DNA from: Thioclava sp. GXIMD4216
GTDB lineage: Bacteria > Pseudomonadota > Alphaproteobacteria > Rhodobacterales > Rhodobacteraceae
DNA: 64,000 bases
Direction: 5' to 3'
Assembly (NCBI RefSeq): GCF_037949285.1
Contig: NZ_CP149928.1
Coordinates: forward strand, 62,001-126,000
The translations under genes were made by a program, and so were the position numbers. Each line of letters starts with the position of its first letter. Within the stretch, counting starts at the first letter, position 1. Below the pieces are notes generated by a model. It had not been told where the DNA came from. It saw nothing but the letters and a program-made list of their open reading frames with translations, and made no database searches. Shown one piece after another: positions 45,484 to 60,443 of this stretch.

Positions 45484-45558
45484 TGGGGCGTAGCCAAGTG
45501 GTAAGGCACCGGTTTTTGGTACCGCGCACCGTAGGTTCGAATCCTACCGCCCCAGCCA
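45484..45558 (+). tRNA. tRNA-Gln (anticodon TTG)
   Basis: The acceptor arms TGGGGCG and CGCCCCA pair perfectly, followed by G and an encoded CCA. The T arm reads GTAGGTTCGAATCCTAC. The anticodon loop TTTTGGT, flanked by CCGGT and ACCGC, gives TTG at 45516-45518; the outermost anticodon-stem pair is a C-C mismatch. Old and new transposon remnants begin just downstream. Confidence 0.95.
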
Positions 45559-45811: not shown

Positions 45812-46299
45812 TCAGTCTGAGGCTGCGGCCATCTCGTTGCGGGCCTCCGCGTTGATCTGCAGGAGCGCGTGGGTGGGGTAGAATGGCAGATCGCCCAACT
45901 CCGGCGCGAAGCCCAGGCCCCGCGACCGCGCCAGGTAGCGTATCTCGGTGCCGGTCAGCCCGGTTTGCCGCGCTGCGACCTTCACCGACATGTACTTGGC
46001 TTGGAAGACTTTCATGGCATCCCATGGGATCAGGATCCGTCGTGGAACCACGGAGTCGACCGCAAGAGAATAGCTCGGGAGGCATCCGGTATAGCGTAAT
46101 TTCCGGATCGAAGCCTCGTTGACGCCCAGTGCGAGTTGCGCCTCTCTCAGCGTCAGATCGCGCACGTTCGATTGCTCCAGAGCCTGGACCAGATCGGTCG
46201 GGTTCAGGCGCAGGCCGAGGACGCCGGATTCACGATACGTCAAAACGGCGGATGCCAGGCGACCCTCGCTCAGCAGCCGGGTGACATGGTGCAGAGTGC
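45812..46299 (-). pseudogene. C-terminal remnant of an old tniQ-like gene
   Basis: About 162 codons remain. The first part (HHVTRLLSEGRLASAVLTYR, then LRLNPTDLVQAL and LTLREAQLALGV) aligns with the C-terminal part of the intact TniQ at 46503-48041 (FLGHLKRGY, VFDPEEIQAL, LSEASYFL). The remnant continues with two helix-turn-helix-like blocks. An open frame runs on to 46408, but those 36 extra codons are the end of the younger transposon. A few codons of the same gene (QDQAIAAADCT) lie on the other side at 58701-58739. Confidence 0.75.
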
Positions 46300-46411
46300 T
46301 GTTGGACCCATTAGTAATTGTCCATTGAGACTTTTTGATGCGCCATAAGCTATTGAAATTATACATCCTAAAATGCCGGCTTCTGCACTGAGGCCACCAT
46401 TTGTCCATTTT
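46300..46411. repeat. Left transposon end with TniA-binding repeats
   Basis: The terminal TGTTGGACCC is followed by TTGTCCATT at 46318-46326 and TTGTCCATTTT at 46401-46411. The right end has the same 9-mer, inverted, twice. These are the expected binding sites of the transposase. Confidence 0.85.
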
Positions 46412-46440
46412 ACACAGAGAAAATGGCCATCGAAAGTTCA

Positions 46441-46467
46441 GAAAAAAATGCCGCCCGAAGGCGGCAT
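46441..46467 (-). terminator. Rho-independent terminator after tniQ
   Basis: On the minus strand ATGCCGCC, the tetraloop TTCG and GGCGGCAT form an 8-bp stem followed by seven Ts. It ends the tniABQ transcript just inside the left transposon end. Confidence 0.92.
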
Positions 46468-46502
46468 GATCTGGGTTTCAAAGGAACGTCGAGTTCTGTG
46501 GG

Positions 46503-48041
46503 TCAGCTAATCAGGAAATACGAGGCTTCGGAGAGACCGGGCGGAGGGGATTCGGCCAGCGCCTGGATTTCCTCCGGATCGAATACCAGCGCTGCAAACC
46601 CGTGTGCGCCGGACACCCGATAGCCCCGTTTCAGATGGCCGAGGAACATCACTTCGAGGATAAACTTCGCCTCGGCGCGGGATTTTTCGGCAGCCCTGGA
46701 GAGATAGGCGAAGCCTTTTGGCACCTCTTCAACCAACGGAAATCTCGCCTCCAGAAGCCGAAGGATCGGCTTCACCCTTTGGCCGTTGACGGCTTTGCCG
46801 ATTTTGCTGGCGAGCGCATATTGCCCCCGAACGAGCTGCAACTGGCCGATCTCGATAAGCAGCTCGACGAGCGCATGGGAAGCCCCAAGCATGGTCAGCA
46901 GGCAAGAGACGGGAACGGCATGTTTCACGATGTCGATCAAATCGCGCGCGACCGTGTAGTCGACCACCAGCCGATTGCTGCGCTGCGCGACGTCCTCAGC
47001 GTCCAACAGCCCCGCCATCTGCAGGACATCGCGCATCGTTCCCGCATCAACACCTTCCGCCCTTGCGATCGACGCGACGCTGCTCAGGTGGGGATCTGTG
47101 ACCGGCTTACCCAGAAGCATCTGCCCCTTGCTGAGCGGGGTGGTCTCGACGATCACATCGCGAAGAATATCCCGAATAGGCTCCGGATTCTGGGTTGGTC
47201 GGTGGCTGGACAACCACGTATGGAGCATGCCGAAGACCGCGCGAGGTGCTGCGCGCTTGCCTCTGGAGGACGTGACGCGCGCCATAAGATTCTGACGGAT
47301 CGCCGCGCCGCCACTCAAGACGATGGGCCAACCTGCACGCCCGGCTGCATCCCACATATCCTGGCTCATCTCCGAGGCTTTCATCTTCGGGCCGAAGAGA
47401 TCGAGCGCACCCAGCATTTCTGTCGCCCGTACAGCCTGGTCGATATCCTGACCATCCAACCATGCGGGCCCTGCGATATGCTCCAGACGCGCGGCAACGT
47501 AGGCCTGCAGCGGGGAGACCGTGCGCACCACATCGCGCACTTGCTGCCCGGCAACATCCAGGGCCGTCACGGCCTGAAGCGCGCCTGCGAGATTGTCCCA
47601 CGTCCCCGCGCAGAGGTCACGGAGCGCGATCCCGTGAACCGCGCAGGTCCTGACCGGCGCCAGTTTCCAGAGGAGGCGATGACGCAGTGCGGCATTGGAA
47701 TATCGCGCCTCGGCCATATCTTTGCTGAGACAGGCGGGACAGACGCGGGTGACTGGACCGCAGGTGAAGGCGGCAGCGAAGTCGAGCCCGCGCAACCGGT
47801 AGCGCCGAGGACCAACAGCGGAGATCGTATTGCGCAGGACCGCCGCAGGATCATGCCCCGCCTTCTCGCAAAGGCGCCGAACTGCCTGCTCGTCGCCGCG
47901 GGCAAGCGCTACAAGCGGAATGCCAAGGTCCTGCAGAAACGCCGGAACAGGGCCGCGCGTATGGAAGGCGGCCTGCCGCACCGCCCAAGACAAAGGCGTC
48001 TCATCATCAATGAAGGGCAGCATGGGGAAAAGCGTGGTCAT
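46503..48041 (-). CDS. tniQ: TniQ family target-selection protein
   Basis: The 512-residue protein has an N-terminal TniQ region (MLPFIDDETPLSWAVRQAAF) and a zinc-binding block with CPACL at about residue 100 and a C..H pair in RTCAVHGIALRDLC, as in TniQ/TnsD proteins that choose the insertion site. It ends at LSEASYFLIS, where the older paralogue at 45812-46299 continues for more than 90 residues; so the C-terminal DNA-binding part may be shortened. I chose the ATG at 48041 (GAGGGCAG upstream), 10 bases behind tniB. Confidence 0.85.
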   Translation of the reverse strand: MTTLFPMLPFIDDETPLSWAVRQAAFHTRGPVPAFLQDLGIPLVALARGDEQAVRRLCEKAGHDPAAVLRNTISAVGPRRYRLRGLDFAAAFTCGPVTRVCPACLSKDMAEARYSNAALRHRLLWKLAPVRTCAVHGIALRDLCAGTWDNLAGALQAVTALDVAGQQVRDVVRTVSPLQAYVAARLEHIAGPAWLDGQDIDQAVRATEMLGALDLFGPKMKASEMSQDMWDAAGRAGWPIVLSGGAAIRQNLMARVTSSRGKRAAPRAVFGMLHTWLSSHRPTQNPEPIRDILRDVIVETTPLSKGQMLLGKPVTDPHLSSVASIARAEGVDAGTMRDVLQMAGLLDAEDVAQRSNRLVVDYTVARDLIDIVKHAVPVSCLLTMLGASHALVELLIEIGQLQLVRGQYALASKIGKAVNGQRVKPILRLLEARFPLVEEVPKGFAYLSRAAEKSRAEAKFILEVMFLGHLKRGYRVSGAHGFAALVFDPEEIQALAESPPPGLSEASYFLIS

Positions 48042-48051
48042 GAAACTGCCC

Positions 48052-49005
48052 TCACCGTTTGCGCCGGCGAGGGGGATCTTCCTCTTCGATCTCATCGGGC
48101 TTCAAGAGCCAGTAGTGCTCGGCGTAGAACACATTGTCGGCAGCTGTGCAGGCTTCGTTCATTGCATAGGCCGCCGCGAAATGCCCGATGTCCAGATCTT
48201 CGTCACCGCGCCCGATGGCGATTTCTATGGCCTGCAGCAGGTGCTCGAGCGCCCGGCCGAAGCGATAGCGTGCCCCGTGGAAGAGGCGTCCGATCAGATC
48301 CGCCTCAATCGGCGCCCCGAGGCCCACCCGCGCGCAGTATTGCGTGATGATCTCGCGGAAACTAGCGCTATCGACCTGCTCCACGAGATCGGGCAGTACC
48401 ATCGCGGTGAACCTGCGCTTTACCTGCGGATCCGTCCGAATGACCCCGGCGAGGTCTTCCGTGCCGGACAGGACCACGATGACGGCATCGTCGCCCTGCA
48501 TCAGGGATTTCAGCGCTCGCAGGATCAGTTTGCGGTCCGCGCAGAACAGATCCTGCGCTTCGTCGATCCAGAGCACCGAGATCCCGAGAAGCTGCAAGCG
48601 GTGACGCAGGTCCTGCAAGAGAGACCACGCCTCCCTGCGCGGATTGGCGTCGGGGTAGCCACTTTCTTCCAGCAGAGCGAGGATCATACTCTTGAACGTT
48701 GCAGGGCTGGGCACCGAACAGCCAAGATAACGCGGCCGCCCGTATTCACCCTCCTGCAGCACCGCAAGCCTCGACAACGTGCGCTCCAACAGATGGGACT
48801 TGCCGCTTCCCGGCCCGCCGATCAGCATGACCCCGCGGGTTTCCCCGGTTCGGGTGAAGCGCTTGGCGACAGGGGTCAGGTCCCCCTGTTCGTCCGTGGC
48901 AAGAAGGCGCGTCAGATGCAGTGCCGCCTCGGCGTCACGCGCGGAACCGATATGGAGGCCGCGGACCCGCTCCAAGGCGCTCTTTGCGGTATCAGCTTTT
49001 GCCAT
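48052..49005 (-). CDS. tniB: TniB/TnsC-like AAA+ regulator of transposition
   Basis: The 317-residue ATPase has Walker A GGPGSGKS near residue 63 and Walker B SVLWIDEAQDLF near residue 140, followed by VVLSGTEDLAGVIRTDPQ (sensor region). TniB/TnsC proteins polymerise on DNA and link TniQ-marked targets with the transposase. Its ATG lies 2 bases after the tniA stop, and tniQ follows, giving the order tniA-tniB-tniQ. Confidence 0.88.
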   Translation of the reverse strand: MAKADTAKSALERVRGLHIGSARDAEAALHLTRLLATDEQGDLTPVAKRFTRTGETRGVMLIGGPGSGKSHLLERTLSRLAVLQEGEYGRPRYLGCSVPSPATFKSMILALLEESGYPDANPRREAWSLLQDLRHRLQLLGISVLWIDEAQDLFCADRKLILRALKSLMQGDDAVIVVLSGTEDLAGVIRTDPQVKRRFTAMVLPDLVEQVDSASFREIITQYCARVGLGAPIEADLIGRLFHGARYRFGRALEHLLQAIEIAIGRGDEDLDIGHFAAAYAMNEACTAADNVFYAEHYWLLKPDEIEEEDPPRRRKR

Positions 49006-49007
49006 GA

Positions 49008-50072
49008 TCAGTTCTCCTCGATGGTCATGTTGGATTTGGACGAGGTGGGCGTGACGCTGCGCGTTTTGGTGGTCCGCTTCGCAGGTTTGGCGGGCGTCTC
49101 CGCCGTGCAGGGTTTCTCAGCCGCCACGGTCAGCTCGGAGGAGGCGGGGATTTCCATGCCCAGACCCTCTTTTGCGTTGCGCAGCTCTTTGCGCTCAACG
49201 AACTCGATACCGGCCAGAAGCTTCTTCTCCTCCTTCGCGCAGCGTTTCTCGGACCAGTCCTCGAGGTTGAGGCCGGCCGCGGCCATCGCGGCATCGTTGC
49301 GCTCTTTGATCGCCCTGATGGCGTCACGGACAGCAACATTGTCGAGCCGGTTCGATTTCGGGTTCGCGTCGCGGACGTGACGGACAGCCGTCAACCAGGT
49401 CTGTGCTGCGACCCCCTGCAGCGACGGGTCAAGCGCAGGCACCTCGTACCAGGTATTGCCCCCTTTGACCGAGATGGCGCCGATGTCCTTGGGGTGCCAC
49501 CGCACGGACACCTTCTCGGGCGCCTCGCGACGGAAGAGCGCTTGGGTCGCTTCAGATTGATAGCGCACGCCCAGAATGGTAATGCCCGTCTTGTCGAGGC
49601 GATACTCGCGCTCGTGGCCGAAGCACAGCCGCATCATCTCCGCATCCGGCGGCGGCGTCACGCCATGCAGCTTCGACAGGCGACGCCAGGCCTTCACAGG
49701 AGTTTCGCCGCCCAGCCCGTGATGGGGCGTGTTGTGGTAGATGTCGATCACCCAACGCAGCAGCGCGAAGGTGAAGTCGTCCAGGCTCAGCGCTGCGCGC
49801 TTCTCGGGATCCGCATCGCCCTTCTCCATGATGCTGGAGAACGTGTGCCCCGACAGACGCGGCGCGAAGTCGCTCCGGAAGCTGCCGAATGCGCGCTCGA
49901 TCGTTCCGCGGTTTTCCGGCACACCATTCATCGCCATCTCCCACATTACACCGAGATCCTCGGCCGCCATGCGAAAGCGCATCGACTTGAAGGCAGAGCC
50001 ACCATCAAAGACGATCAGCTCGGGCGTGCCATGCATGTCCCAAGGAGTCAGAGCCCCGACAGCGTCCGCCCA
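49008..50072 (-). pseudogene. tniA: tniA transposase, 5' part missing
   Basis: About 355 codons remain of a Mu/TnsB-type DDE transposase: WADAVGALTPWDMHGTPELI, the second catalytic Asp in IVFDGGSAF and the Glu in GTIERAFGSF, then the Mu-C-terminal-like domain (VRWHPKDIGAISV) and a basic Thr/Lys-rich tail that probably contacts TniB. The N-terminal DNA-binding domains and the first catalytic Asp are absent. Sequence before about 50072 belongs to an IS110-family fragment on the other strand, so an IS event removed the 5' part. The exact junction is uncertain by about 10 bases. Confidence 0.85.
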
Positions 50073-50074
50073 CG

Positions 50075-50572
50075 CCCCCTTACGGCGACTGGCTCTGGCT
50101 GGATGACCGGATCGACGCGGTCTCAAAAGAGATCGAGCAGATCAGCCGCACCGAGGCGAACTGCGTCAACGTCATGACCATTCCTGGTATCGGACCGATG
50201 ATTTCGACGGCGATGGTTGCCGCGATTGGCACGGGAGAGGCATTCGGGCGTGGACGGGATTTTGCGGCATGGGTCGGCTTGGTTCCCAGACAATACAGCA
50301 CGGGTGGCCGAACGGTGCTTGGCCGCATTTCCAAACGTGGCAGTCGATACCTGAGGATGCTCTTCGTTCAGGCCGCCAAGGTCATTCTAATGCGGGCCAA
50401 TCGATAGCCTGACTTCAGCTTTGGCGATTGGTTGATCCGCGCATCGGAGAGGATGAACAGAAACAAGCTGGCCGTGGCGCTGGCCAACAAACTGGCGCGC
50501 ATGGCCTGGAGTATCCTCAGACACAGAACCGCGTTTGACGCACCGAGAGACGAGGTCACTGCCGGTATTTGA
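50075..50572 (+). pseudogene. IS110 family transposase, C-terminal fragment
   Basis: The frame reads DWLWLDDRIDAVSKEI, then TIPGIGPMISTAMVAAIG and DFAAWVGLVPRQYSTGGRT, the typical C-terminal (transposase_20) half of IS110/IS116 enzymes. An in-frame TAG at 50405-50407 interrupts it, after which the same frame continues (FGDWLIRASERMNRNKLAVA) to a TGA at 50570-50572. The N-terminal DEDD half is missing. It abuts the broken tniA. Confidence 0.85.
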
Positions 50573-50900
50573 GCCGGGGCGACCTAAAGGAGTTCGCGAC
50601 AGATCGAAAGCATGGAACGGAACAATTACGTCCCCAGAATCTGACGGCCCAAACGGTCCTTGATGACCATTCCGCTAATTAGATCACGGCGCGTGCGTAA
50701 CCCCAACAAGGCCACGACCCGCGTGTCGATCAACAGGCCGGATACATATGAGCGACTTCCGAGATCATGCCAGAAATCATTTGCGAACAGCAGCCGGTAC
50801 ATACATTTGGGCCGTGAGCGTCATGGTGGTGTACCTGGGAAGCCATGCCGCCAGCCGCAGCGCCGCATGACCGCTTTGAGCCCAAACCGGACCGTCGAGA
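50573..50900. other. No gene; degenerate repeat sequence
   Basis: This 328-bp stretch has no convincing coding frame. It contains, at 50863-50884, a copy of a 22-bp motif (CCGCATGACCGC, then TTTGAGCCCA) that recurs with one change at 53546-53567. The rest probably is IS110 flank and decayed intergenic DNA. Confidence 0.4.
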
Positions 50901-51290
50901 TCAGCACCAGATCGCAGGGAGAACGATGTCACGCGTAAGGGGAGCTAGATCAAGTTGGTCCTGCGACCCCGGTTGCACCCAGCGAACCTCTTCGATCTCC
51001 GCTTGCGCTTCGACGTCATCGTCTAGCTGAACGCGAAACATCTCGGCCGTTACGAGACAGCCGGGTTCGTTGGCAGCGGGGGCAGAAAACCGACCGAGAT
51101 ATTCCGCGTTTTCGGGTTGGAGAACCAGCGAAAGCTCCTCGAAAAGCTCACGACGGAGAGCGTTCAAAGGCGTCTCATCGCCATCGATTTTTCCGCCGGG
51201 CTACATAAAGGCAGACGTGCCGCGCTTCCGGACAAGCAGGGTTGCTCCATCTCCCCGAAGGATGGCAGCGGCGGCTATGCGGATTTCCAT
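50901..51290 (-). pseudogene. Nudix hydrolase with internal stop codon
   Basis: The frame starts at an ATG at 51290 behind GAGGAAAG and reads MEIRIAAAAILRGDGATLLV, then after FM a TAG (51201-51203) where a Gln is expected, then PGGKIDGDETP and the Nudix box residues G..E and RELFEEL. A MutT-like pyrophosphohydrolase of about 129 residues would result if the stop were read through. The remaining frame downstream lacks the beta-sheet needed for folding. So it is most likely a single-nonsense pseudogene. Confidence 0.75.
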
Positions 51291-51773
51291 GAGTCTTTCC
51301 TCGTGATTGTTACTTCGGCTCTCCATAGCGCAAGGTCCATATTTTCCCAATGGCAGGAATGTCCGCACCGCGGACCTTGGGGCCCTAGACTATGCTGCAC
51401 CGTGTCACTGATGGCCGGTTTGGAGAAGCTGCGCTGCGGCGTTGGTGGTCCAGGCGAACTGCAGGTAAGGGCCGAGCACGTCGGCGCAGCCTCGCTGCAT
51501 CTGCGCGACGGTGCGCCGGCGAGGTTCAGCACAAGCGCTTGGAGCGGACAAAAGCTGCTTGAGCCGCTCGCGGCCTTTTGCCGAGTTAGGCATTTTCCGA
51601 AGCTATCTCATGTTTTTAAGCACGTGTTCTTGGCCGACCGCTTCACCCGTGCTTTTTAGGGGCAGGATGCTGCACTGCATTCGTTGTGTCCCGTCGGCAG
51701 CGCCAGTAGGGTGCCACCGTTATTGCCAGAATCTTGTGCTCCGAGCTGGCCGACCGCACATATGGAGGCTAGT
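51291..51773. other. No gene; contains a dispersed repeat
   Basis: Short open frames exist on both strands, but none is convincing. Positions 51456-51483 match 53480-53507 in 23 of 28 bases (core GGCCGARCACGTCG). The promoter of the DUF6882-like gene must lie near the 3' end of this stretch. Confidence 0.4.
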
Positions 51774-53270
51774 ATGCCTTACCCGTTGAATGATTGGCAG
51801 TTGCCGCCGGTTTGGCGAGTGCTGTTTCGTGGATTGGATGGGCTTGATCAGGCCAAGCCGCTTTACGGCAGATTGTGTGCGCTTGCTGAGGGCGGGCCGA
51901 AGGTGCTCGACGGTGAGCTGGTGAAAAGCTGGAACGTCGAACAGGACGGCGGGCGTTTTACTGCAACGCTGAACACCGGCGATACGCTGGAGGCGCGGGT
52001 GGCCTTTCTTGGTACGCATGATGGGCAAAGCTTTTTGTGGGCCGATGCCAACCCGTCGTTGCGTGCCGAGCTTACCTCGCCCGCGACAGTGTTACGAGGG
52101 CTGCTGCCGCAGGAATTGGCTGTGATCCGACAGCGGGACGCTACCGAAATTACTTACCGCGATGCCATCGCCTTGCTTGGCCTTGCCGCTGAGCATCTGC
52201 CCTGCGACTTGGTTTATCCGGCGCACTCGAACGGACGGCTGGTGCTGATGGTGCTAAGCGAGGCCCAGCTTAACACGGCGCGCGAGCCCTCGTTCCTTAA
52301 GCGGCTGCTGACGCGGCCAAGGGCGCCAACTGTGGCCGAGCAGCTGGCGGCGCTGCGTCGCACCGTTGATCAGGCGTTGAACCAGTGGCAGCAAAACCTG
52401 TTGCCCTTTGACAAGCTCTGTGCGCTCGATCCGCTCGCGGCCCGGGCGCATGCGGCGCTGATTGCAGGCAATGCAGGGCAAGCACTTGCCGCACTCGAGC
52501 AAATCAAGGCCGCGCTTGGCCGCTACGCGGTGGATCAGGAGCCGACCGGCTGGGTTTATTTTGCCGAGGGAATAGCGCGGCTAGCGGTCGGGAATTTGCC
52601 GCGCGCCCGTGCGGCGTTTGCTATTGCCGAAAGAGCGATCCTGCCCGAGCCAAAGTGTCTTATTTTGCTGGCGCAGGCGCGGGCAGCGGAGCTGGACCAG
52701 GGCGATCATTTTCTGAAATCGGCCTACCTGAGCGCGCCCGCTATCTTTGAGGCGCAGGCCAACGCGCACGAACAGACGCAGGTGCGGGCCGCACTTGCTG
52801 CACTTGCCGCCACGCGGGCGGACCTTGCGCCTGAAAGCCTGGTGAAAAACGCTATTGCCGCCTTTTGTGATTTTGAACGTGCCGCCTTTGCGCGCAGTCA
52901 GGCTGCGGCACGGTTCCGGCAGGAAAGACATGTTCTGTGCGAGGCAGACGAGGCGGCGACACTGCTCAGCAACAAGGCATGGGTCGACCTTCTACTGACG
53001 TGGGCCACGCCGGAGCGCGCCACCGCGCCTTCGTCGCTTTCCTCCGACCCCGATCTCGCGCCCGAGCGCATAGAATGGTTTGGCGAGGTAAAGACTACAG
53101 GGGCCGAGGCGACGGTTACGGTGGGGTTCAAGGGCCGCTTCGCAGGAGCCACAGGACGACAAGTTTGCTATACGCTGCGCCAAACCGCGATCCCGATGCT
53201 TGAGGGGACAATGTGGCGTCTAGAGAGCGTGCGAGACGTTACCGACGCAGTCTCCTACGACCTGATCTGA
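51774..53270 (+). CDS. Large hypothetical protein with DUF6882-like N-terminal domain
   Basis: The 498-residue protein starts MPYPLNDWQLPPVWRVLFRG behind GGAGG. Residues 50-180 resemble DUF6882 (GDTLEARVAFLGTHDGQSFL, then WADANPSL, and later AIALLGLAAEHLPCDLVYPA). The middle, about 220-380, is Ala/Leu-rich and helical and may form TPR-like repeats. The C-terminal 60 residues (EVKTTGAEATVTVGFKGRF) look beta-rich. No catalytic motif is apparent and no transmembrane segment is present. It lies in the cargo part of the transposon. I do not know its function. Confidence 0.7.
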   Translation: MPYPLNDWQLPPVWRVLFRGLDGLDQAKPLYGRLCALAEGGPKVLDGELVKSWNVEQDGGRFTATLNTGDTLEARVAFLGTHDGQSFLWADANPSLRAELTSPATVLRGLLPQELAVIRQRDATEITYRDAIALLGLAAEHLPCDLVYPAHSNGRLVLMVLSEAQLNTAREPSFLKRLLTRPRAPTVAEQLAALRRTVDQALNQWQQNLLPFDKLCALDPLAARAHAALIAGNAGQALAALEQIKAALGRYAVDQEPTGWVYFAEGIARLAVGNLPRARAAFAIAERAILPEPKCLILLAQARAAELDQGDHFLKSAYLSAPAIFEAQANAHEQTQVRAALAALAATRADLAPESLVKNAIAAFCDFERAAFARSQAAARFRQERHVLCEADEAATLLSNKAWVDLLLTWATPERATAPSSLSSDPDLAPERIEWFGEVKTTGAEATVTVGFKGRFAGATGRQVCYTLRQTAIPMLEGTMWRLESVRDVTDAVSYDLI

Positions 53271-53636
53271 CGCCGCTGCAAAATCTAACGAGACGTCCTG
53301 CTCTCTTGGCGGATTTACCGGTGAGTTTTCGTAAGTCAGAACGTTAACAGGATCTAACCAGTTGTTCGCCATGCCACGCGGCGAGGCACCTGTCCGCGAC
53401 ATTCTGCCTTGAGTTTTGCTGCACGATGCCATGGATTTCCTGTTTGGGGAAGCTGCACGGCAGCGATAGGCCGCCCCATGAACGGCAGAAATGGGCCGAA
53501 CACGTCGACAGGGTAGCGCTGCCCTCGTATCGGGCTGCTGCAACGCCGCATGACCGCTTCGAGCCCATATTGACGAATGCTGCAGTATCGGCGAGGGTCG
53601 GATAATAAGCAGGGTGATTACTTGGCTGGGATTTCA
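53271..53636. other. No gene; dispersed repeats upstream of the GIY-YIG gene
   Basis: The stretch holds the second copies of the two repeats noted at 51456 and 50863: positions 53480-53507 and 53546-53567. No coding frame is convincing. The start of the following gene lacks a strong ribosome site, so a longer N-terminus (ATG at 53577) cannot be excluded. Confidence 0.4.
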
Positions 53637-54524
53637 ATGTTTGCTTTTGAGGGCGACCGCGTTTTGGCAGATCAGTTCGTGAAGAACCTCCCGCCTAGTT
53701 CATTCTATACCTACGTGCTTTTGACCCCTGAATTTGTTCCATTCTACGTTGGGAAAGGAAAGGGCTCGCGGCTTCTTCAGCATGAAACAGAAGCACTACG
53801 CCAAACAAAAATTTATAAGAGCAACCCCTTTAAGTGTAACAAAATACGCAAGATAATCAGCAATGGTAAGCAGGTTTTCTATCGAGTTGACCGAGTTTTT
53901 GGCGGTGACGAGGCGGCTTGCTTGCGCCGTGAAGAGGAGCTCATCTCTCTATACAAGAGACGTTGTGACGGCGGCATACTTACTAATCTCGCTGCTGGAC
54001 TAGGTAGCCTTTCGTCACGTGACCCACTGACGTCGAGTCGCCATGCCGCCACGCTCTCTGGCGTGGTCCATGGCAATCCTGAGCGGACAACAATGAACTT
54101 ATACCTTGAGTCGTTAGGAGAAGTTCGAAGTGTCCCGATCAAGCCTCTGACTGAGTATAGAACTAAGCTTGTAAACGCTTATCCAAGCCCCAAGTCTCTA
54201 AAAAACTTGACGATGAGGAATGGACTGACAATCGTTGCGAGCGTGCTAGCCACGGGACTCAAACTTGAGCCGGGAGTGATAGTTCCTCGAAAGTTCTCTA
54301 TAGCTCCGGAATTGGAAAACTGGCCATTAAAAGAACAGCCCCCCAAAGAGGTGGAGGGAGTTATCGAGAATGGCGCCGCGAGCGATATTCTAAAGCTCGG
54401 TCTTGTCGAGCTAGTTCCGGCCGTGCTGCCGGAAGACGAAGCATTCAGATTGGACCATGCGCAGATGCAGAGATTGGTCAACCTAGTCGGAGAAAAGTTC
54501 CTGTCAGATTTCGATCTAATCTAG
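53637..54524 (+). CDS. GIY-YIG domain nuclease
   Basis: The 295-residue protein has a GIY-YIG nuclease domain at about 20-110: SFYTYVLLTPEFVPFYVGKG (the two strand motifs with YVL and FYVGKG), KGSRLLQH with the catalytic Arg, and later EEELISLYKRR with the metal-binding Glu. A Thr/Ser-rich linker leads to an unknown C-terminal domain of about 180 residues. The codon use is much more AT-rich than that of the neighbours, a sign of recent transfer. GIY-YIG enzymes act in repair, homing or phage defence. Confidence 0.8.
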   Translation: MFAFEGDRVLADQFVKNLPPSSFYTYVLLTPEFVPFYVGKGKGSRLLQHETEALRQTKIYKSNPFKCNKIRKIISNGKQVFYRVDRVFGGDEAACLRREEELISLYKRRCDGGILTNLAAGLGSLSSRDPLTSSRHAATLSGVVHGNPERTTMNLYLESLGEVRSVPIKPLTEYRTKLVNAYPSPKSLKNLTMRNGLTIVASVLATGLKLEPGVIVPRKFSIAPELENWPLKEQPPKEVEGVIENGAASDILKLGLVELVPAVLPEDEAFRLDHAQMQRLVNLVGEKFLSDFDLI

Positions 54525-54621
54525 ATATCTAAGTGAAGCCGCAGGGCTGCCGCGTCGCAATTTCAGACATTGTAATCTAATGCGCCAAGGTTCGCATTGT
54601 CCGCATTGCTGATGTTTGCAG

Positions 54622-54656
54622 CGGATGTGTCGCGCAGGTTCGGCGCGACACATCCG
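54622..54656. repeat. Perfect 14-bp stem hairpin
   Basis: CGGATGTGTCGCGC and GCGCGACACATCCG pair perfectly around the loop AGGTTCG. No T-run follows on either strand. It lies between the GIY-YIG and ABC-F genes and could be an attenuator, a small inverted repeat element or a folded recombination site. Confidence 0.6.
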
Positions 54657-54765
54657 TTGAAGGCCAAGGGCCGCTTCGAGCCCAAAAGTTCCGTTGGTTC
54701 TGGCTTGTAAAATCGCCGGGCGCCCCCTACGTTTGAGACATCCTGAAACTGGAGATGCTATCAAC

Positions 54766-54870
54766 ATGGACCTGAACCTCGCCGCATTCGCCCCTTCGAT
54801 TTCGCTGCGAGAAGTTCTGCCCCATGCCTGCATCCGTTTCCCTCTCCGGCCTGTCCTGGTCCACGCCTGA
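54766..54870 (+). other. Possible upstream ORF overlapping the ABC-F start
   Basis: An ATG at 54766, 11 bases behind GGAG, opens a 34-codon frame (MDLNLAAFAPSISLREVLPH at the start) that overlaps the first 15 codons of the ABC-F gene in another frame. Resistance ABC-F genes are often controlled by such leaders, but here this is speculative. Confidence 0.25.
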
Positions 54871-56407
54871 CGACGCGCCCCTTCTTACCGACCTCAACCT
54901 GACTTTCGGCCCGGAACGCACCGGCATCGTCGGGCGCAACGGCATCGGCAAGAGCACCCTCCTTCGCCTGATTTCCGGTGATCAGCTTCCCGCTGCGGGA
55001 CAGGTCCGCGTGACCGGCTCCATTGCAATGATGCGGCAGGAAGCGTTGGAGCGGCCCGATGACGTCATCGCCGATCTTTTTGGCGCACGACCCGCGCTCG
55101 ACCTTCTTGATCGCGCAGAGGCGGGCCTTGCGGATGTCGATGAACTGGCCGACGCGGATTGGACCCTTCCCGCGCGGATGGAAGCGGAGCTTTTGCGCTG
55201 TGGCTTGCCGGTCGGGCCGCAGACCCTTCTGGCGACGCTTTCGGGTGGTCAGCGCAGCCGTGCCGCCCTTGCCGCCCTGATCTTTGCCGCACCGGATTTC
55301 CTGTTGCTGGACGAACCAACGAACAATCTCGACCGGGACGGACGCATGGCGGTGATCGACCTCATCCGGGGTTGGACAGGTGGTGCGATCATCGTCAGCC
55401 ATGACCGTGAACTTCTGGAAGAAATGGACTCCATCGTCGAACTCACCTCGCTTGGCGCGGCTCGGTATGGCGGAAGTTACAGTGATTTCCGGCAGCGGAA
55501 GGCCACCGAGTTGGACGCGGCTGTACGTGACCTCGCCCATGCCGAGAAAACCCGCGCCGACGTGGCCCGTCGCGCGCAAGAGGCAAGCGAACGTAAGGCT
55601 CGCAAGGACAGTGCCGGACAGCGGGCGCGCGCGAAGGGTAATCAGCCGAAAATCCTGATGGACGCCGCCAGGGAACGGGCTGAGGCGTCGGGCGGCGCAG
55701 GTGTCCGTCTGCGCGAGGCCCGGCGCGAGGCCGCAGATAAAGCGCTGACCGCCGCCCGAGAGAAGATCGAAATCCTTCAGCCCTTGCGCATGGACGTCCC
55801 CCCAACGGGCCTTGCGACCAGCAGAACGGTGCTGCGACTGGAAAGGGTGACCGGCGGCCATGACCCCGATCATCCCTTGATCCGTGACCTGTCGCTGACC
55901 GTGACCGGCCCCGAGCGCGTTGTCATTAGAGGGCCGAATGGCAGCGGAAAGACGACGCTTCTGAAGATCATCACCGGACAGATCGTGCCGCAAATGGGCC
56001 TCGTGGCACTTTCGGTACCATTTGCCGTGCTGGATCAGCATGTCCAGCTGATCGACCCAGCCCTGTCCCTTCGCGACAATTTCCGTCACCTCAACCCCTT
56101 GGCTGATCCCCATACCGCGCACGCGGCACTGGCCAGGTTCGGTTTCCGCGCCGGGGATGCCTTGCGTTACGCGGGGGAGTTGAGCGGCGGCGAGCGTCTG
56201 CGCGCCGGTCTGGCCTGTGCCCTAGGCGCCACCCCGCCGCCGCCGTTGCTGATCTTGGACGAGCCGACCAATCACCTTGATCTGGATGGTATCATGGCCC
56301 TTGAGGCTGCGCTGGCTACTTATGATGGGGCCGTTCTAGCGATCAGCCATGACACGGCATTCATTGAATCCCTCGCACCGGAGAGGACCTTGGATCTTGG
56401 GATATGA
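54824..56407 (+). CDS. ABC-F family ATPase
   Basis: The 527-residue protein has two ABC domains without membrane segments: Walker A GRNGIGKST and GPNGSGKTT, signatures LSGGQRSRAAL and LSGGERLRAGL, and Walker B LLLDEPTNNLD and LILDEPTNHLD. A linker of about 80 residues, charged and helical, separates the domains. ABC-F proteins bind the ribosome; some protect it from antibiotics, others are translation factors. Location in transposon cargo favours a resistance or stress role, but this is inference. The ATG at 54824 has a GAGAAG site. Confidence 0.88.
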   Translation: MPASVSLSGLSWSTPDDAPLLTDLNLTFGPERTGIVGRNGIGKSTLLRLISGDQLPAAGQVRVTGSIAMMRQEALERPDDVIADLFGARPALDLLDRAEAGLADVDELADADWTLPARMEAELLRCGLPVGPQTLLATLSGGQRSRAALAALIFAAPDFLLLDEPTNNLDRDGRMAVIDLIRGWTGGAIIVSHDRELLEEMDSIVELTSLGAARYGGSYSDFRQRKATELDAAVRDLAHAEKTRADVARRAQEASERKARKDSAGQRARAKGNQPKILMDAARERAEASGGAGVRLREARREAADKALTAAREKIEILQPLRMDVPPTGLATSRTVLRLERVTGGHDPDHPLIRDLSLTVTGPERVVIRGPNGSGKTTLLKIITGQIVPQMGLVALSVPFAVLDQHVQLIDPALSLRDNFRHLNPLADPHTAHAALARFGFRAGDALRYAGELSGGERLRAGLACALGATPPPPLLILDEPTNHLDLDGIMALEAALATYDGAVLAISHDTAFIESLAPERTLDLGI

Positions 56408-56571
56408 CCGCTTCGTCCGCATCAACGACATTCGACCTAGGATTTGCAGCACCAAATTATAAATGTCCGCTTCGGGCCATGCGACGTGGTCCAGATTTGC
56501 GTGTCGGGAGTTACCAGAAAAATGTTATATACGAAGTGGCCTGCAAACATGCGCAGAACATCAGCACTCAT

Positions 56572-56880
56572 TTAAAAGCCAGCTCTTGTCTGTAGTTTTT
56601 CATCGGCAAGCCCTTCGCGCCGCCAGATCCGTTCGACCCGCTTGTGATTCACACTCCATCCCCCCGCGATCAGTAAGCCGGTAATTTGACGATAGCCGTA
56701 GCTTTCATATTGGCGCGCCATCTGGACGATATGAACAGTCAGCAGAGCTTCATCTTGACGCGCCGCAGGAACCTTACGTTGGGTCGAGCGATGCTGCCCT
56801 AGGACTTGGCAAGCGCGGCGTTCGGAAACGCCGACTTCTTGCCTGACATGGTTTATGCATTGGCGACGGCGCGAGGGGCT
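56572..56880 (-). pseudogene. IS3 family orfB, N-terminal fragment
   Basis: The frame reads RRRQCINHVRQEVGVSERRA and YESYGYRQITGLLIAGGWSV, then NHKRVERIWRREGL, the start of an IS3-type OrfB. It ends shortly after, before the DDE core. It is paralogous to the OrfB at 59072-59632. Confidence 0.8.
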
Positions 56881-57170
56881 TAGAAGTTTCCCTGAGCTGC
56901 CTCTGTCAGGATCCGCTTGTCGAGCGTCAGCTCTGATACCGATCGTCTGAGCCGTGAATTCTCTTGCTCCAGATCTTTCAGCCGCTTGATCTGATTGCAG
57001 CTCATGCCGCCAAACTCCCGTCGCCACCGATAATAGGTTTGCGGCGTCACATCAAACTGGCGCACGGCATCCGCTATTGGCACGCATTGCCCCCGCAGAA
57101 TTTCTACTTTTTGAAGCTTACGGAAGATATCTTCCGGTGCCTCTCGTTTTCTTGTCATTATCATACCCAT
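56880..57170 (-). CDS. IS3 family OrfA
   Basis: The 96-residue protein has an N-terminal helix-turn-helix (AVRQFDVTPQTYYRWRREFG) and a leucine-zipper-like helix (LKDLEQENSRLRRSVSELTL), as in IS3-family OrfA. Without a complete OrfB the insertion sequence is inactive. The element is inside the larger transposon, between the ABC-F gene and the AAA+ ATPase. Confidence 0.85.
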   Translation of the reverse strand: MGMIMTRKREAPEDIFRKLQKVEILRGQCVPIADAVRQFDVTPQTYYRWRREFGGMSCNQIKRLKDLEQENSRLRRSVSELTLDKRILTEAAQGNF

Positions 57171-57309
57171 CGGCGATGCGAGGTGCTACTTCGCAAAAAT
57201 GTTGATTACTTAGGCAGAACAAAGTGGCTGCCAAAGGCCGGTCGCTCCCAGCCTTTTGGGCTCAGCGTGAGGAGCCGGCCTCCACCACGACTACGGTGCT
57301 TCCTGCCGC

Positions 57310-58407
57310 TTAATGCAGCAGCGGGCTGCTTGCCTCTGCCTCCGCCCTCGCCAGCATCCTGGATACATGACGCAGGTTAAGCTGATGCGTATCGGAGAAT
57401 TGCTCAATTACTTGATAGATTCCGCCCAGAGCAGCCTCGGACAATATTCGTTTTGCACCCTCCCGTTCCGCGAATGCGATGAGATCGCCCTTGCTCAGTC
57501 CAGTAAGGCGCAGGACTTCCAAACGGCTCAGAAACGGTGCCGAAAGAGGATAGAGGCTGTTTGAAGTCAGGACCCAGCTGATCCAGGACATGTCGAAGCC
57601 GATCTGATAATAGGGGCATTTCCACGCCGCAGCGGAAGACGGCTCCAGAAGGGGCAGCAAGCCATCGGTTAGCCCGTAGGCCTGCCCCTTGGTCGAGGTC
57701 GGGGTCCCGGCCTTCTCGATCTCATCAATCACGACAATCGGATTCGCACAGAGGCTCTGCACGATGGTTTGCAAAGGGCGTCCCGGGAAGGCAGTGCCCC
57801 AGCCGCGTTGCGAGCCGTTGACCACGAAGGAGGCTTGCTCGGCCGTACCTTCGATCCCGCAACGCGGAACGCGGAGGTGACGGCTCAACTCTCGGGACCA
57901 CGCGCTTTTGCCTATCCCGGGTGGGCCATCAAGAAGGACAGGCGGCAGCCGGAAACCAGGCTCACCCGCCCGCACCGAGCGGCGCATCGCTTTCCACAGA
58001 AAGTCGGTGGCGGCCGCCATCCAGGGCATCTCGGCATGGATCGCCGCAGCAATCTCATCGGCGCGATGTTCGCTGCCGATGCCGACCAGATCCGCGCCAT
58101 TCCTGAAGACCTCGAGCGCGCGCCGATCATCCGAACTGAGATGGCTGAGACCCGAAGCCTTGGCGCGCGCGCCCATAACCCGGCGGGCACGACGCAGCAC
58201 CTTGTTGCGGTCCTTTTCCGAGAGCGGCACGGCGATGAGGTCCTCGTTCCAGCGCAGCTCATCCTCGAAGTCTCCGGGAGCCTTTGGAGACACCCCGTCC
58301 TGAAGAGCACGGATCTTGCGCAGATGCCACTCGAAGCGGCGCTTAAGGGAGAACTCGGTTTCGTCGGGATCGGCGAAGCGGGCATCGATGAACTTGATCT
58401 TCGTCAT
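57310..58407 (-). CDS. AAA+ ATPase near the right transposon end
   Basis: The 365-residue protein has a helical N-terminal part of about 130 residues and one AAA+ domain with Walker A GPPGIGKS near residue 160, Walker B IVVIDEIEKAG near residue 225 and sensor ISWVLTSNSL near 285. The core resembles that of Lon-type ATPases, without a protease domain. It begins about 290 bases from the right end and points inward, as transposition genes do, so it may be a fourth core gene of the element rather than cargo (inference). AAAGGAC precedes the ATG. Confidence 0.75.
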   Translation of the reverse strand: MTKIKFIDARFADPDETEFSLKRRFEWHLRKIRALQDGVSPKAPGDFEDELRWNEDLIAVPLSEKDRNKVLRRARRVMGARAKASGLSHLSSDDRRALEVFRNGADLVGIGSEHRADEIAAAIHAEMPWMAAATDFLWKAMRRSVRAGEPGFRLPPVLLDGPPGIGKSAWSRELSRHLRVPRCGIEGTAEQASFVVNGSQRGWGTAFPGRPLQTIVQSLCANPIVVIDEIEKAGTPTSTKGQAYGLTDGLLPLLEPSSAAAWKCPYYQIGFDMSWISWVLTSNSLYPLSAPFLSRLEVLRLTGLSKGDLIAFAEREGAKRILSEAALGGIYQVIEQFSDTHQLNLRHVSRMLARAEAEASSPLLH

Positions 58408-58700
58408 GGAAGTCCTTTCTGGGCATTGCGCCATGCCCTCGAGCAGAGACCTGCAAGAGGGAAATATTGGAAAGAACCCGGCCGGATTTGCCCTAGGGGA
58501 TGCCGAAAGTGCTTTTGGCCGTCAACGCCGCCGACCGAAGCAGAGCGATGCTAAGGCGCATAAAAGGCTGCAAATCCGAAAGAATGTTAAGCCATTGCTA
58601 AAAAAAGACTTTGCGGATTGATGTGCGACTGGTGGTCATTTGGTCTGTGCCGAAATGGACAAATTACCCCAGAAATGGACAATATTTAGTGGGTCAAACA
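58408..58700. repeat. Right transposon end with inverted TniA-binding repeats
   Basis: AATGGACAA occurs at 58654-58662 and 58674-58682, the inverse of the TTGTCCATT blocks at the left end. The terminus GGGTCAAACA ends at 58700 and is followed by AGTGC, the target duplicate. The part before the repeats holds no gene and probably the promoter of the AAA+ gene. Confidence 0.85.
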
Positions 58701-58739
58701 AGTGCAGTCCGCCGCGGCGATCGCCTGGTCTTGCCCCCC
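58701..58739 (-). pseudogene. Short right-hand fragment of the old tniQ-like gene
   Basis: If the transposon and one copy of AGTGC are removed, the minus-strand frame reads QDQAIAAADCTLHHVTRLLS without interruption into the remnant at 45812-46299. Only about 12 codons remain before the IS3-type end at 58740. Confidence 0.65.
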
Positions 58740-58793
58740 TGAAGTGGTCCACCTTTAGGGATAGTTTATCCCGCATGATGGAGGACTACTTAG

Positions 58794-59072
58794 ATGGCAG
58801 GCAAACGCGAGAAGCCGGAAGATATCGTCATGAAGCTGCGTCAGGTTGAGGTCTTGCAGGGTCAAGGCGCGAAACTGGCGGATGCTGTGCGCCAGATTGG
58901 CGTGACATAACAAACCTACTACCGTTGGCGGCGTGAGTTTGGCGGGATGAACCGCGATCAGCTCAAGCGACTGAAGGAACTCGAGAAAGAGAATACGCGG
59001 CTCAGGCGCGCCGTGTCGGATCTGACGCTCGACAAGCTGATCCTGACGGAAGCCGCAAAGGGAAACTTCTAA
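58794..59072 (+). pseudogene. IS3 OrfA with internal stop
   Basis: The frame starts MAGKREKPEDIVMKLRQVEV and ends LTEAAKGNF. A TAA at 58908-58910 stands where relatives have a Glu or Gln codon before QTYYRWRREFGG. The 38-codon product would lack half the helix-turn-helix. Confidence 0.8.
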
Positions 59073-59632
59073 GCCCTTCGCGTCGCCGCCAGTGCATTGA
59101 CCACGTCCGGCAGGAACTCGGCATCTCTGAACGCCGCGCCTGTCGGGCGCTTGGACAGTACAGATCGACCCAACGCAAGGTTCCCGCAGGTCGTCATGAC
59201 GAAGCGCTTTTGACGGCCGACGTCATCGAACTGCCGCGCAAATACGGACGATATGGCTATCGCCAAATCACCGGTTTGTTGCATCAGGCGGGATGGTGCA
59301 TCAATCACAAGCGGGTCGAACGGATTTGGCGACGTGAAGGGCTTAAAGTGCCGCAAAAGCAGAAGAAACGTGGGCGGCTCTGGCTGGCGGATGGCTCCTG
59401 CGTCCGATTGTGGGCCGAGCGCCCGAACCATGTCTGGTCATACGATTTTGTCCAGGACCGGACGGTAGACGGGCGGGCCTATCGGATGCTCAATATCGTA
59501 GACGAATTCACCCGGGAGGTGCTGGTGATCCGTGTCAAACGCAAGCTCAACTCGGTCGACGTCATCGACGTGCTGACCGATCTGTTCATCCTTCGAGGTC
59601 CGCCCGAGTTTATACGGTCCGATAACGGCCCC
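59072..59632 (+). pseudogene. IS3 OrfB (rve transposase), truncated
   Basis: The frame reads SPSRRRQCIDHVRQELGISE, then YGRYGYRQITGLLHQAGW, with the first catalytic Asp in NHVWSYDFV and the second in FIRSDNGPG. It is cut by the IS6 element right after this, before the final Glu. Confidence 0.85.
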
Positions 59633-60443
59633 GGGCATTACCAACTTGTTCGGGAAGTCTGTGTCGGCTAGGCATCCGGCATGAAAGCGGCGTCCGATCT
59701 GCCACGCCTGAAAGGCTACCGCTTCCCCCGCGCGATCGTTGCCTACGCGGTCTGGGCATACCACCGGTTCGCGCTGAGCACGGCGGATGTCGAAGACCTG
59801 CTCGCGGAGCGCGGCGTGATCGTCAGCCGGGAAACGGTCCGCAAATGGGGCAACCGATTTGGCCGCCATTTTGCGTCCTGCATCAAGCGCGATAGGCCAG
59901 GCGGCCGCGACAAGTGGCACCTCGATGAGGTCGTTATCGCGATCCGCGGGAAGAAACACTGGCTCTGGCGGGTCGTCGACGCGGAAGGTCACGTGCTAGA
60001 CATTCTGGTTCAGTCCCGGCGGAACGCCAGGGCAGCAAGACGTTTCCTTAAAGGGCTGATCGGCCGGTTCGGCGCGCCACGTGTCATCGTCACCGACAGG
60101 CTGCGCAGCTATATCAAGCCAATTCGAGAACTCGCTCCGGGTGCTGATCACCGGGCGCACAAGGGCCTGAACAATCGCATCGAAGGGTCCCACCGGCCGA
60201 CCCGAAAGCGCGAGAAGCTCATGGGCAAGTTCAAGTCCGCAAGGCAGGCTCAGAGATTCCTCGCTGCGCATGATCAGATCAACACGATCTTCCGCCCGCG
60301 CCGCTATCGCCTGTCCGCCACATCCTACCGCCACGCCAGATCCGACGCCCATGCCCTCTGGGCTGAATACGCCCTTAAAATGACCGCCTGACAGACACCC
60401 TGTCGGCCCAACTCGCCGATCGCCAAATAAGTTGGCAATGCCC
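59633..60443 (+). mobile_element. IS6 family insertion sequence
   Basis: The 811-bp element has inverted repeats starting GGGCATTACCAACTTGTTCG (left) and GGGCATTGCCAACTTATTTG (right). The flanking 8 bases (ACGGCCCC and CTGGGCTA) differ, so no target duplication remains. This points to IS6-mediated deletion or recombination that joined IS3 to the sugar-acid genes. Confidence 0.9.
59681..60391 (+). CDS. IS6 family transposase
   Basis: The 236-residue enzyme has the DDE residues in KWHLDEVVIAIRGKKHWLWR, IVTDRLRSYI and NNRIEGSHRPTRKREK, and the N-terminal region LSTADVEDLLAERGVIVSRE with its helix-turn-helix. It appears complete and may be active. Elements of this kind move by replicative cointegrate formation. 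Confidence 0.92.
   Translation: MKAASDLPRLKGYRFPRAIVAYAVWAYHRFALSTADVEDLLAERGVIVSRETVRKWGNRFGRHFASCIKRDRPGGRDKWHLDEVVIAIRGKKHWLWRVVDAEGHVLDILVQSRRNARAARRFLKGLIGRFGAPRVIVTDRLRSYIKPIRELAPGADHRAHKGLNNRIEGSHRPTRKREKLMGKFKSARQAQRFLAAHDQINTIFRPRRYRLSATSYRHARSDAHALWAEYALKMTA

What the first reader, a model, noticed from the sequence alone, without database searches (positions are those of the whole stretch)
46300..58700. Complete boundaries of a 12.4-kb TniABQ-type transposon
Ends TGTTGGACCC and TGTTTGACCC (inverted) agree in 22 of 27 bases, each end carries two TTGTCCATT blocks, and both flanks are AGTGC. Few such elements can be delimited by eye this exactly. The gene order AAA+ ATPase, cargo, tniA', tniB, tniQ is not one I recognise from Tn7, Tn5053 or Tn402.
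Basis: partly seen in the sequence, partly recalled or inferred. Interest (0 to 1): 0.8.

Follow-up and report, generated by a model that had tools for sequence, protein, structure and literature searches.

The report
Stray relic of nrdJ-homing Tn7-like transposon
The window holds a complete but disabled Tn7-like transposon whose intact relatives insert just behind a ribonucleotide-reductase gene (nrdJ); this host lacks that gene, and its copy sits inside a leftover piece of another transposon.

Summary
The boundaries are real to the base: 46300-58700, 22/27-bp inverted ends, two TTGTCCATT blocks per end, AGTGC duplication. A congener has a copy with near-identical ends and its own duplication (AGTGT); another congener has the target uninterrupted.

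It is a defective Tn7-like transposon. The tnsA-like gene and the N-terminal half of tniA are gone, with an IS110 fragment at the break. Intact relatives read RE - Lon-type AAA+ gene - cargo - tnsA - tniA - tniB - tniQ - LE, so the odd gene order is conserved.

The new result is the home site. In relatives the AAA+-side end lies 18-25 nt behind the stop codon of nrdJ (760-aa B12-dependent ribonucleotide reductase), in one orientation. The window's genome, and the congener with the other stray copy, have no such nrdJ. The window copy sits in the remnant of another element's tniQ.

The predicted TniQ has a TniQ core plus three weakly matched HTH-like repeats, as expected of a TnsD-type homing protein. 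The AAA+ gene also sits behind ychF, secA, a glutamine-synthetase-family gene and long-form nrdJ elsewhere, so it may be a core gene. Its function is unknown.

New variant of a known kind.

The parts
46295..46299 (+). target-site duplication AGTGC, left copy
   Evidence: single copy (AATGC) at the uninterrupted site in G004:C41
46300..46326 (+). left end (LE) terminal inverted repeat, with block TTGTCCATT 46318-46326
46401..46409 (+). second LE block TTGTCCATT (putative transposase-binding site)
46503..48041 (-). tniQ, TnsD-like: TniQ core plus three HTH-like C-terminal repeats; 512 aa from the start shared with homologues (open frame to 48095)
   Evidence: PF06527 3.5e-17; homologues; model and fold comparison
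48052..49005 (-). tniB (TnsC-like AAA+ regulator)
   Evidence: PF05621 7.2e-16; relatives
49008..50087 (-). tniA', C-terminal part of the TnsB-like transposase; N-terminal half and the tnsA-like gene missing
   Evidence: aligns to residues 372-702 of a 727-aa relative; PF09299
50108..50404 (+). IS110-family transposase fragment at the tniA break
   Evidence: PF02371 3.6e-25
50901..51167 (-). NUDIX-domain fragment, cargo
   Evidence: PF00293 6.1e-6
51684..53270 (+). cargo ORF with DUF6882
53577..54524 (+). cargo ORF with GIY-YIG domain (weak PD-T4-3 match)
54824..56407 (+). cargo ABC-F ATPase
   Evidence: NF000355 310 bits, under its 380-bit cut-off
56572..57170 (-). IS3-family transposase remnant
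57310..58407 (-). Lon-type AAA+ ATPase without protease domain, 365 aa; the conserved RE-proximal gene of the family (open frame to 58434)
   Evidence: position conserved
58674..58700 (-). right end (RE) terminal inverted repeat with block TTGTCCATT (58674-58682); second block 58654-58662
58701..58705 (+). target-site duplication AGTGC, right copy
45812..46299 (-). target gene, C-terminal part: remnant of another element's tniQ; the reading frame continues across the joined flanks, with homology to G004 up to 58726
58741..60391 (+). IS3-like and IS6-family insertions that cut off the upstream part of the target gene
   Evidence: the start at the IS3 end (about 58741) is read by eye

Best explanation
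The element is an immobile relic of a Tn7-like transposon of a family that homes to the 3' end of nrdJ (the 760-aa adenosylcobalamin-dependent ribonucleotide reductase). In intact relatives, a TnsD-like TniQ with a C-terminal HTH array would bind the conserved end of the nrdJ coding sequence (inferred). TniB would recruit TnsA+TniA, which cut the element out and insert it 18-25 nt behind the stop codon, AAA+-side end facing nrdJ, with a 5-bp duplication (positions, orientation and duplications shown; biochemistry inferred from Tn7).

The window's genome has no such nrdJ. Its copy, and a sister copy on a RepC-bearing (plasmid-type) contig of a congener that also lacks nrdJ, inserted elsewhere, presumably by a low-specificity or plasmid-directed pathway (inferred). 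The window copy landed in the remnant of another Tn7-like element's tniQ. The tnsA-like gene and the N-terminal half of tniA were lost, with an IS110 fragment now at the break, so the copy cannot move by itself (inferred from gene loss; when they were lost is not known).

The Lon-type AAA+ gene next to the nrdJ-proximal end is a conserved component of the family.
For: Ends and TSD. Second copy G011:C6:106581-131100, TSD AGTGT, on a contig with RepC. Empty target 86% over 803 nt.

Home site: the gene next to the RE is NrdJ (TIGR02504 7.6e-178). RE starts 18-25 nt after its stop in 9 loci read base by base. Three complete nrdJ-homed elements: G317 (TSD TCGGG, 37.2 kb), G178 (ACTGC, 19.6 kb), G014 (ATAAA, 21.9 kb). 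G010 gives the empty nrdJ site for G014. 7 of 31 nrdJ 3' ends read carry the paired RE blocks at 38-40 and 57-60 nt.

TniB places with E<1e-39: 28 in 26 genomes (nrdJ). 10 have nrdJ upstream on the same strand and contig (9.6-36.7 kb), 5 are in genomes without nrdJ, 1 lies elsewhere (behind ychF), 12 have nrdJ on another contig of a draft and cannot be judged.

Own genome: no nrdJ at E<=1e-100 or 1e-60, only distant RNRs. Within the genus 13 of 16 genomes have it; G000, G008 and G011 do not.

Against: The window copy is not at nrdJ, so its homing is inferred from relatives. A genome without nrdJ can only hold off-site copies, so that association is partly forced. Copies also lie away from nrdJ where nrdJ may exist: G004 has an nrdJ-homed copy and another (C89) with no nrdJ seen on its contig; in the named collection 5 of 14 loci with AAA+ at least 56% identical are not behind nrdJ (L192, L193, L195, L200, L254), and nrdJ content of four of those loci's genomes was not tested. 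42 of 62 AAA+ places are outside the tabulated nrdJ-adjacent set (three of them are at nrdJ by flank sequence or coordinates). The left ends of G178 and G014 were chosen by a matching 5-bp flank and differ from their right ends at 7 of the first 14 bases, so those two duplications are less certain than G317's. No TniQ-nrdJ binding was tested. Support for TnsA is weak by Pfam: 4 of 14 members, best E 0.0034.
Confidence: 0.85

Rival explanations
1. The AAA+ gene is ordinary cargo (for example a defence or housekeeping passenger) that merely sits at the end; the family is a plain TnsABC+TniQ transposon.
For: Seven nrdJ-side TniB elements (G007, G024, G277, G286, G287, G102, G126) showed no AAA+ match beside them at E<=1e-40 or only distant ones; the searches scored a capped number of candidates per genome. 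No function is known, and PADLOC gives no match to the AAA+.
Against: The start lies 267-347 nt behind nrdJ in 19 of the 20 adjacent cases (577 in the other), always on the same strand, and the gene recurs behind ychF, secA, a glutamine-synthetase-family gene and long-form nrdJ. Walker motifs are invariant in 44 homologues chosen from the 120 listed.
Confidence: 0.4
2. The off-site window copy was placed by a second, dedicated targeting pathway (as TnsE does for Tn7) aimed at plasmids or other mobile DNA, not by loss of specificity.
For: The G011 copy is on a contig with RepC. The Q. alkalisoli element is on a plasmid and that genome (G149, identified by matching contig length and coordinates) lacks nrdJ. 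The window target is itself mobile-element debris. The two stray TSDs are similar, AGTGC and AGTGT.
Against: Only two stray insertions are pinned to the base; G000:C3 has no RepC match and carries a tRNA gene, so it may not be a plasmid; no TnsE-like gene was seen among the ORFs scanned.
Confidence: 0.35
3. It is a Tn5053/Tn402-type transposon (tniABQ with a resolvase).
For: Shares tniA, tniB, tniQ, a 5-bp duplication and ~25-bp ends (Tn5053 features recalled).
Against: Intact relatives have a TnsA-like gene; no resolvase among the 10 ORFs scanned; homing behind one conserved gene in one orientation.
Confidence: 0.05
4. The apparent ends are chance and the region is an IS-made mosaic.
For: IS110, IS3 and IS6 pieces lie in and beside it.
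Against: Ends, blocks and a TSD recur in a second copy at another site, and an empty target exists.
Confidence: 0.01

Closest known systems
Tn7 (glmS-homing, TnsABC+D; passages of PMC11406308 and the listed start of the abstract of PMC2918618 seen)
   Same: TnsA-B-C plus a TniQ-domain protein with a C-terminal DNA-binding part; 5-bp duplication; subterminal repeats; insertion in one orientation just behind the 3' end of a conserved gene.
   Different: Home gene is nrdJ (for relatives of the AAA+ also ychF, secA, GS-family, long nrdJ). An extra Lon-type AAA+ gene is fixed at the home-gene-proximal end, far from tnsABC/tniQ. No TnsE among the ORFs scanned.
Tn6022 / comM-homing Tn7-like elements (passages of PMC10293859 seen)
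   Same: TnsABC+TniQ with extra conserved factors.
   Different: No TnsF-type recombinase among the window ORFs scanned; different home gene; an AAA+ is the extra gene (role unproven).
Tn5053/Tn402 (recalled)
   Same: tniA-tniB-tniQ order, 5-bp duplication.
   Different: TnsA-like gene in intact relatives, no resolvase among ORFs scanned, gene-specific homing.
Lon protease AAA+ module
   Same: Fold and sequence of the AAA+ module.
   Different: 365 aa, ends after the AAA+ module; no protease domain; gene is transposon-borne.

Membership tests
Tn7-like transposons | TnsB-like DDE transposase with Mu-C domain | tested here: met
   PF09299 22.4 bits (cut-off 21.7) in the window's C-terminal piece; full-length in relatives. 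The window copy is truncated and presumably inactive.
Tn7-like transposons | TnsC/TniB AAA+ regulator | tested here: met
   PF05621 7.2e-16
Tn7-like transposons | TniQ-family target selector | tested here: met
Tn7-like transposons | TnsA endonuclease (one of TnsA and/or TniQ is required in the usage of PMC11406308) | tested here: inconclusive
   Absent from the window. In relatives the profile's best PDB hits are TnsA, E 0.002; Pfam PF08722 in 4 of 14, best 0.0034, below the gathering score in the two shown
Tn7-like transposons | 5-bp duplication, TGT..ACA ends with repeated subterminal sites | tested here: met
nrdJ-homing family (as described here) | end sequences and TniB clade of the nrdJ-homed elements | tested here: met
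   right end 95% identical over 2.3 kb to the nrdJ-homed G004 copy; TniB grouped with nrdJ-homed G178 and with G143
nrdJ-homing family (as described here) | copy lies just behind nrdJ, one orientation (a property of homed copies, not of every copy) | tested here: not met
   Met by relatives; the window copy itself is off-site in a genome without nrdJ.
Tn5053/Tn402 family | tniR resolvase and res site | tested here: not met
   no resolvase among the 10 ORFs scanned; res sites not searched
CRISPR-associated transposons | Cas effector or CRISPR array in the element | not tested
   no Cas domain among the ORFs scanned; arrays not searched
Lon protease | Ser-Lys protease domain | tested here: not met
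   matches cover only the AAA+ module; protein ends at residue 365

The most novel reading that the evidence does not exclude
The Lon-type AAA+ without a protease is a sixth core transposition protein of a broad Tn7-like group. It would be a transposon-encoded unfoldase that remodels or disassembles the strand-transfer complex (or the home-gene-bound TniQ-TniB complex) at the home site, doing for these elements what host ClpX does for MuA (ClpX role recalled). Its place next to the end that faces the home gene, behind nrdJ, ychF, secA, glutamine-synthetase-family genes or long nrdJ, would reflect that role.
Probability: 0.2. Interest if true: 0.85.

Novelty: new variant of a known kind. Interest (0 to 1): 0.62.

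Why it matters
If right, nrdJ (with ychF, secA and a glutamine-synthetase-family gene for relatives) joins glmS and the other home sites of Tn7-like transposons, and the TniQ C-terminal HTH arrays become a set of natural, gene-specific DNA readers. Genomes without nrdJ that hold stray copies are a natural experiment on what such elements do without their home site. The fixed Lon-type AAA+ gene points to a possible unrecognised component of transposition that a deletion can test.

Tried and rejected

Print: no paper in the held library has both 'Tn7-like' and 'ribonucleotide reductase' (0) or 'YchF' (0); DUF6634 in none. Other listings showed none on this family: 11 of 11; 25 of 74; 20 of 23; 20 of 221; 15 of 36; 1 of 1; titles and abstract starts seen. 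PMC10293859, PMC8649781 and PMC11406308 were read as passages only. Paywalled papers and supplements were not searched.
Full report
What is there. The element runs from 46300 to 58700 (12,401 bp). Its ends, TGTTGGACCC and TGTTTGACCC (inverted), agree in 22 of 27 bases. Each end has two TTGTCCATT blocks, at positions 19/102 and 19/39, and the flanks carry AGTGC. A search for any pair of 27-mers 2-40 kb apart with the same properties found this pair and one other; three mononucleotide shuffles gave none. The other lies in two oppositely oriented genes that look like homologous transporter permeases.

Independent proof of the ends. G011, a genome of the same genus, has a 24,520-bp copy (C6:106581-131100) with near-identical ends and a different duplication, AGTGT. 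G004, also same genus, has a right end 95% identical over 2.3 kb in another context. G004 also has the window's target without the element: the joined flanks align at 86% over 803 nt straight across the junction.

The target. The joined flanks give one open reading frame. Its counterpart in G004 is an HTH protein of 243 aa. The reading frame just upstream of it carries a TniQ domain (PF06527, 1.8e-6), and the fragment weakly matches a 665-aa frame beside another tniB. So the element most likely sits in the remnant of a different element's tniQ, near a tRNA gene. IS3- and IS6-family copies cut off the rest.

What is inside. tniQ and tniB are open. tniA is cut: only the part matching residues 372-702 of 727 of a relative is left, beside an IS110 fragment. 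Intact relatives have a gene of about 240 aa (236-248 in three annotated cases) ahead of tniA. A profile of 14 of these has Tn7 TnsA as its best solved relative (E 0.002); Pfam's TnsA model is weak (4 of 14). It was not found in the window. Cargo is a DUF6882 ORF, a GIY-YIG ORF and an ABC-F ATPase. Next to the right end is a 365-aa Lon-type AAA+ without a protease domain.

The conserved plan. In G011, G014, G178, G205, G313 and G317 the order is right end side - AAA+ - cargo - tnsA - tniA - tniB - tniQ, all in one direction; G005 has the same order with AAA+ and tniB about 41 kb apart. Q. alkalisoli and G004:C89 differ: there AAA+ follows tniQ across abutting ends.

The home site. Reading outward from the right end of relatives shows the same gene again and again. 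It is NrdJ, the 760-aa adenosylcobalamin-dependent ribonucleotide reductase (TIGR02504, 7.6e-178, for the G294 copy). In nine loci read base by base (G004, G317, G178, G014, G294, G243, G270, G143, G015) the end starts 18-25 nt after the stop. Three complete elements there have matching duplications: TCGGG (G317), ACTGC (G178) and ATAAA (G014). G317's two ends agree in 12 of the first 14 bases. Those of G178 and G014 agree in only 7 of 14 and were picked as the best candidates with an identical 5-bp flank; for G014 the empty nrdJ site of G010 matches both flanks. Of 31 nrdJ 3' ends read, 7 carry the paired blocks at the expected distance. Of 62 AAA+ places tabulated, 20 start 267-577 nt behind nrdJ on the same strand; G307, G009 and G005 add three. 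In a named but overlapping collection 23 of 80 AAA+ loci do so, 52 do not, and five had too little upstream DNA.

Counts for the transposase side. TniB relatives with E<1e-39 in the two samples number 28 places in 26 genomes. Ten have nrdJ upstream, same contig and strand, 9.6-36.7 kb away (G007, G014, G024, G102, G126, G178, G277, G286, G287, G317). Five are in genomes without nrdJ (G000, G011, G149, G205, G347). One, G313, is elsewhere though nrdJ exists: behind ychF. Twelve have nrdJ on another contig of a draft and cannot be judged.

The stray copies. Within the genus 13 of 16 genomes have this nrdJ; the window's genome G000, G008 and G011 do not, and only distant ribonucleotide reductases are found there. 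Among copies whose AAA+ is at least 55% identical to the window's in the G-handle samples, eight are at nrdJ (G004, G143, G243, G270, G293, G294, G307, G317). Five are not: G000, G011, G149 and G347, all without nrdJ, and a second locus in G004, which has nrdJ. A genome without nrdJ can only have stray copies, so the association is suggestive and not proof of cause. G011's copy is on a contig with RepC; the window's contig has none.

The AAA+ gene. It also stands about 290-360 nt behind other conserved genes: ychF (L260, and G313, which has its own tnsA-tniQ set), long-form nrdJ (L264), a glutamine-synthetase-family gene (L204, L259) and secA (L241). No tniABQ match was found within the fetched DNA of the five L2xx loci, so for them a transposon is inferred. 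This argues for a component of a transposon group rather than chance cargo. But seven nrdJ-side elements show no AAA+ beside them, so it is not universal, and its role is unknown.

Verdict. Observation exact; interpretation partly right. The window copy is a disabled, stray member of a Tn7-like family with an nrdJ home site that I did not find in print.

Noticed in passing
L002 about 17.9-18.0 kb; L078 about 2.73 kb; L142 7546; L195: A left end abuts a second right end with no spacer (tniQ-LE|RE-AAA), the right end lacking 1-2 terminal bases: Q. alkalisoli, G004:C89, G347:C97; in L195 tniQ also precedes AAA+. Possibly a second homing event into the first copy's end.
   Followed up: partly
L260, L114, L264, L204, L259, L241: AAA+ homologues sit behind ychF, long-form nrdJ, glutamine-synthetase-family and secA genes, suggesting further Tn7-like home sites.
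   Followed up: partly
L091 7136-10910; L092 11130-14907; L094 14474-17829: Conserved cassette AAA+ - DUF6634 - metallophosphoesterase - small hypothetical in Paracoccus and Ketogulonicigenium elements.
   Followed up: no
window 45484-45558 and L083 9296-9325: The tniQ remnant hit by the element lies beside tRNA-Gln; in G004 the same remnant lies beside what looks like the 3' end of a tRNA gene that ARAGORN did not call: perhaps an older tRNA-homing element.
   Followed up: partly
window 56656-57158 and 58794-59296: IS3-family copies inside and just outside the element are inverted to each other, 74% alike over 503 nt.
   Followed up: no
L004 15912-17750 and 18200-20023: Two convergent tniQ genes on a P. 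seriniphilus plasmid.
   Followed up: no
window 4015 and 32289: A 27-mer inverted pair with an identical 5-bp flank that is only homologous permease-like coding sequence; a false positive for end finders.
   Followed up: yes
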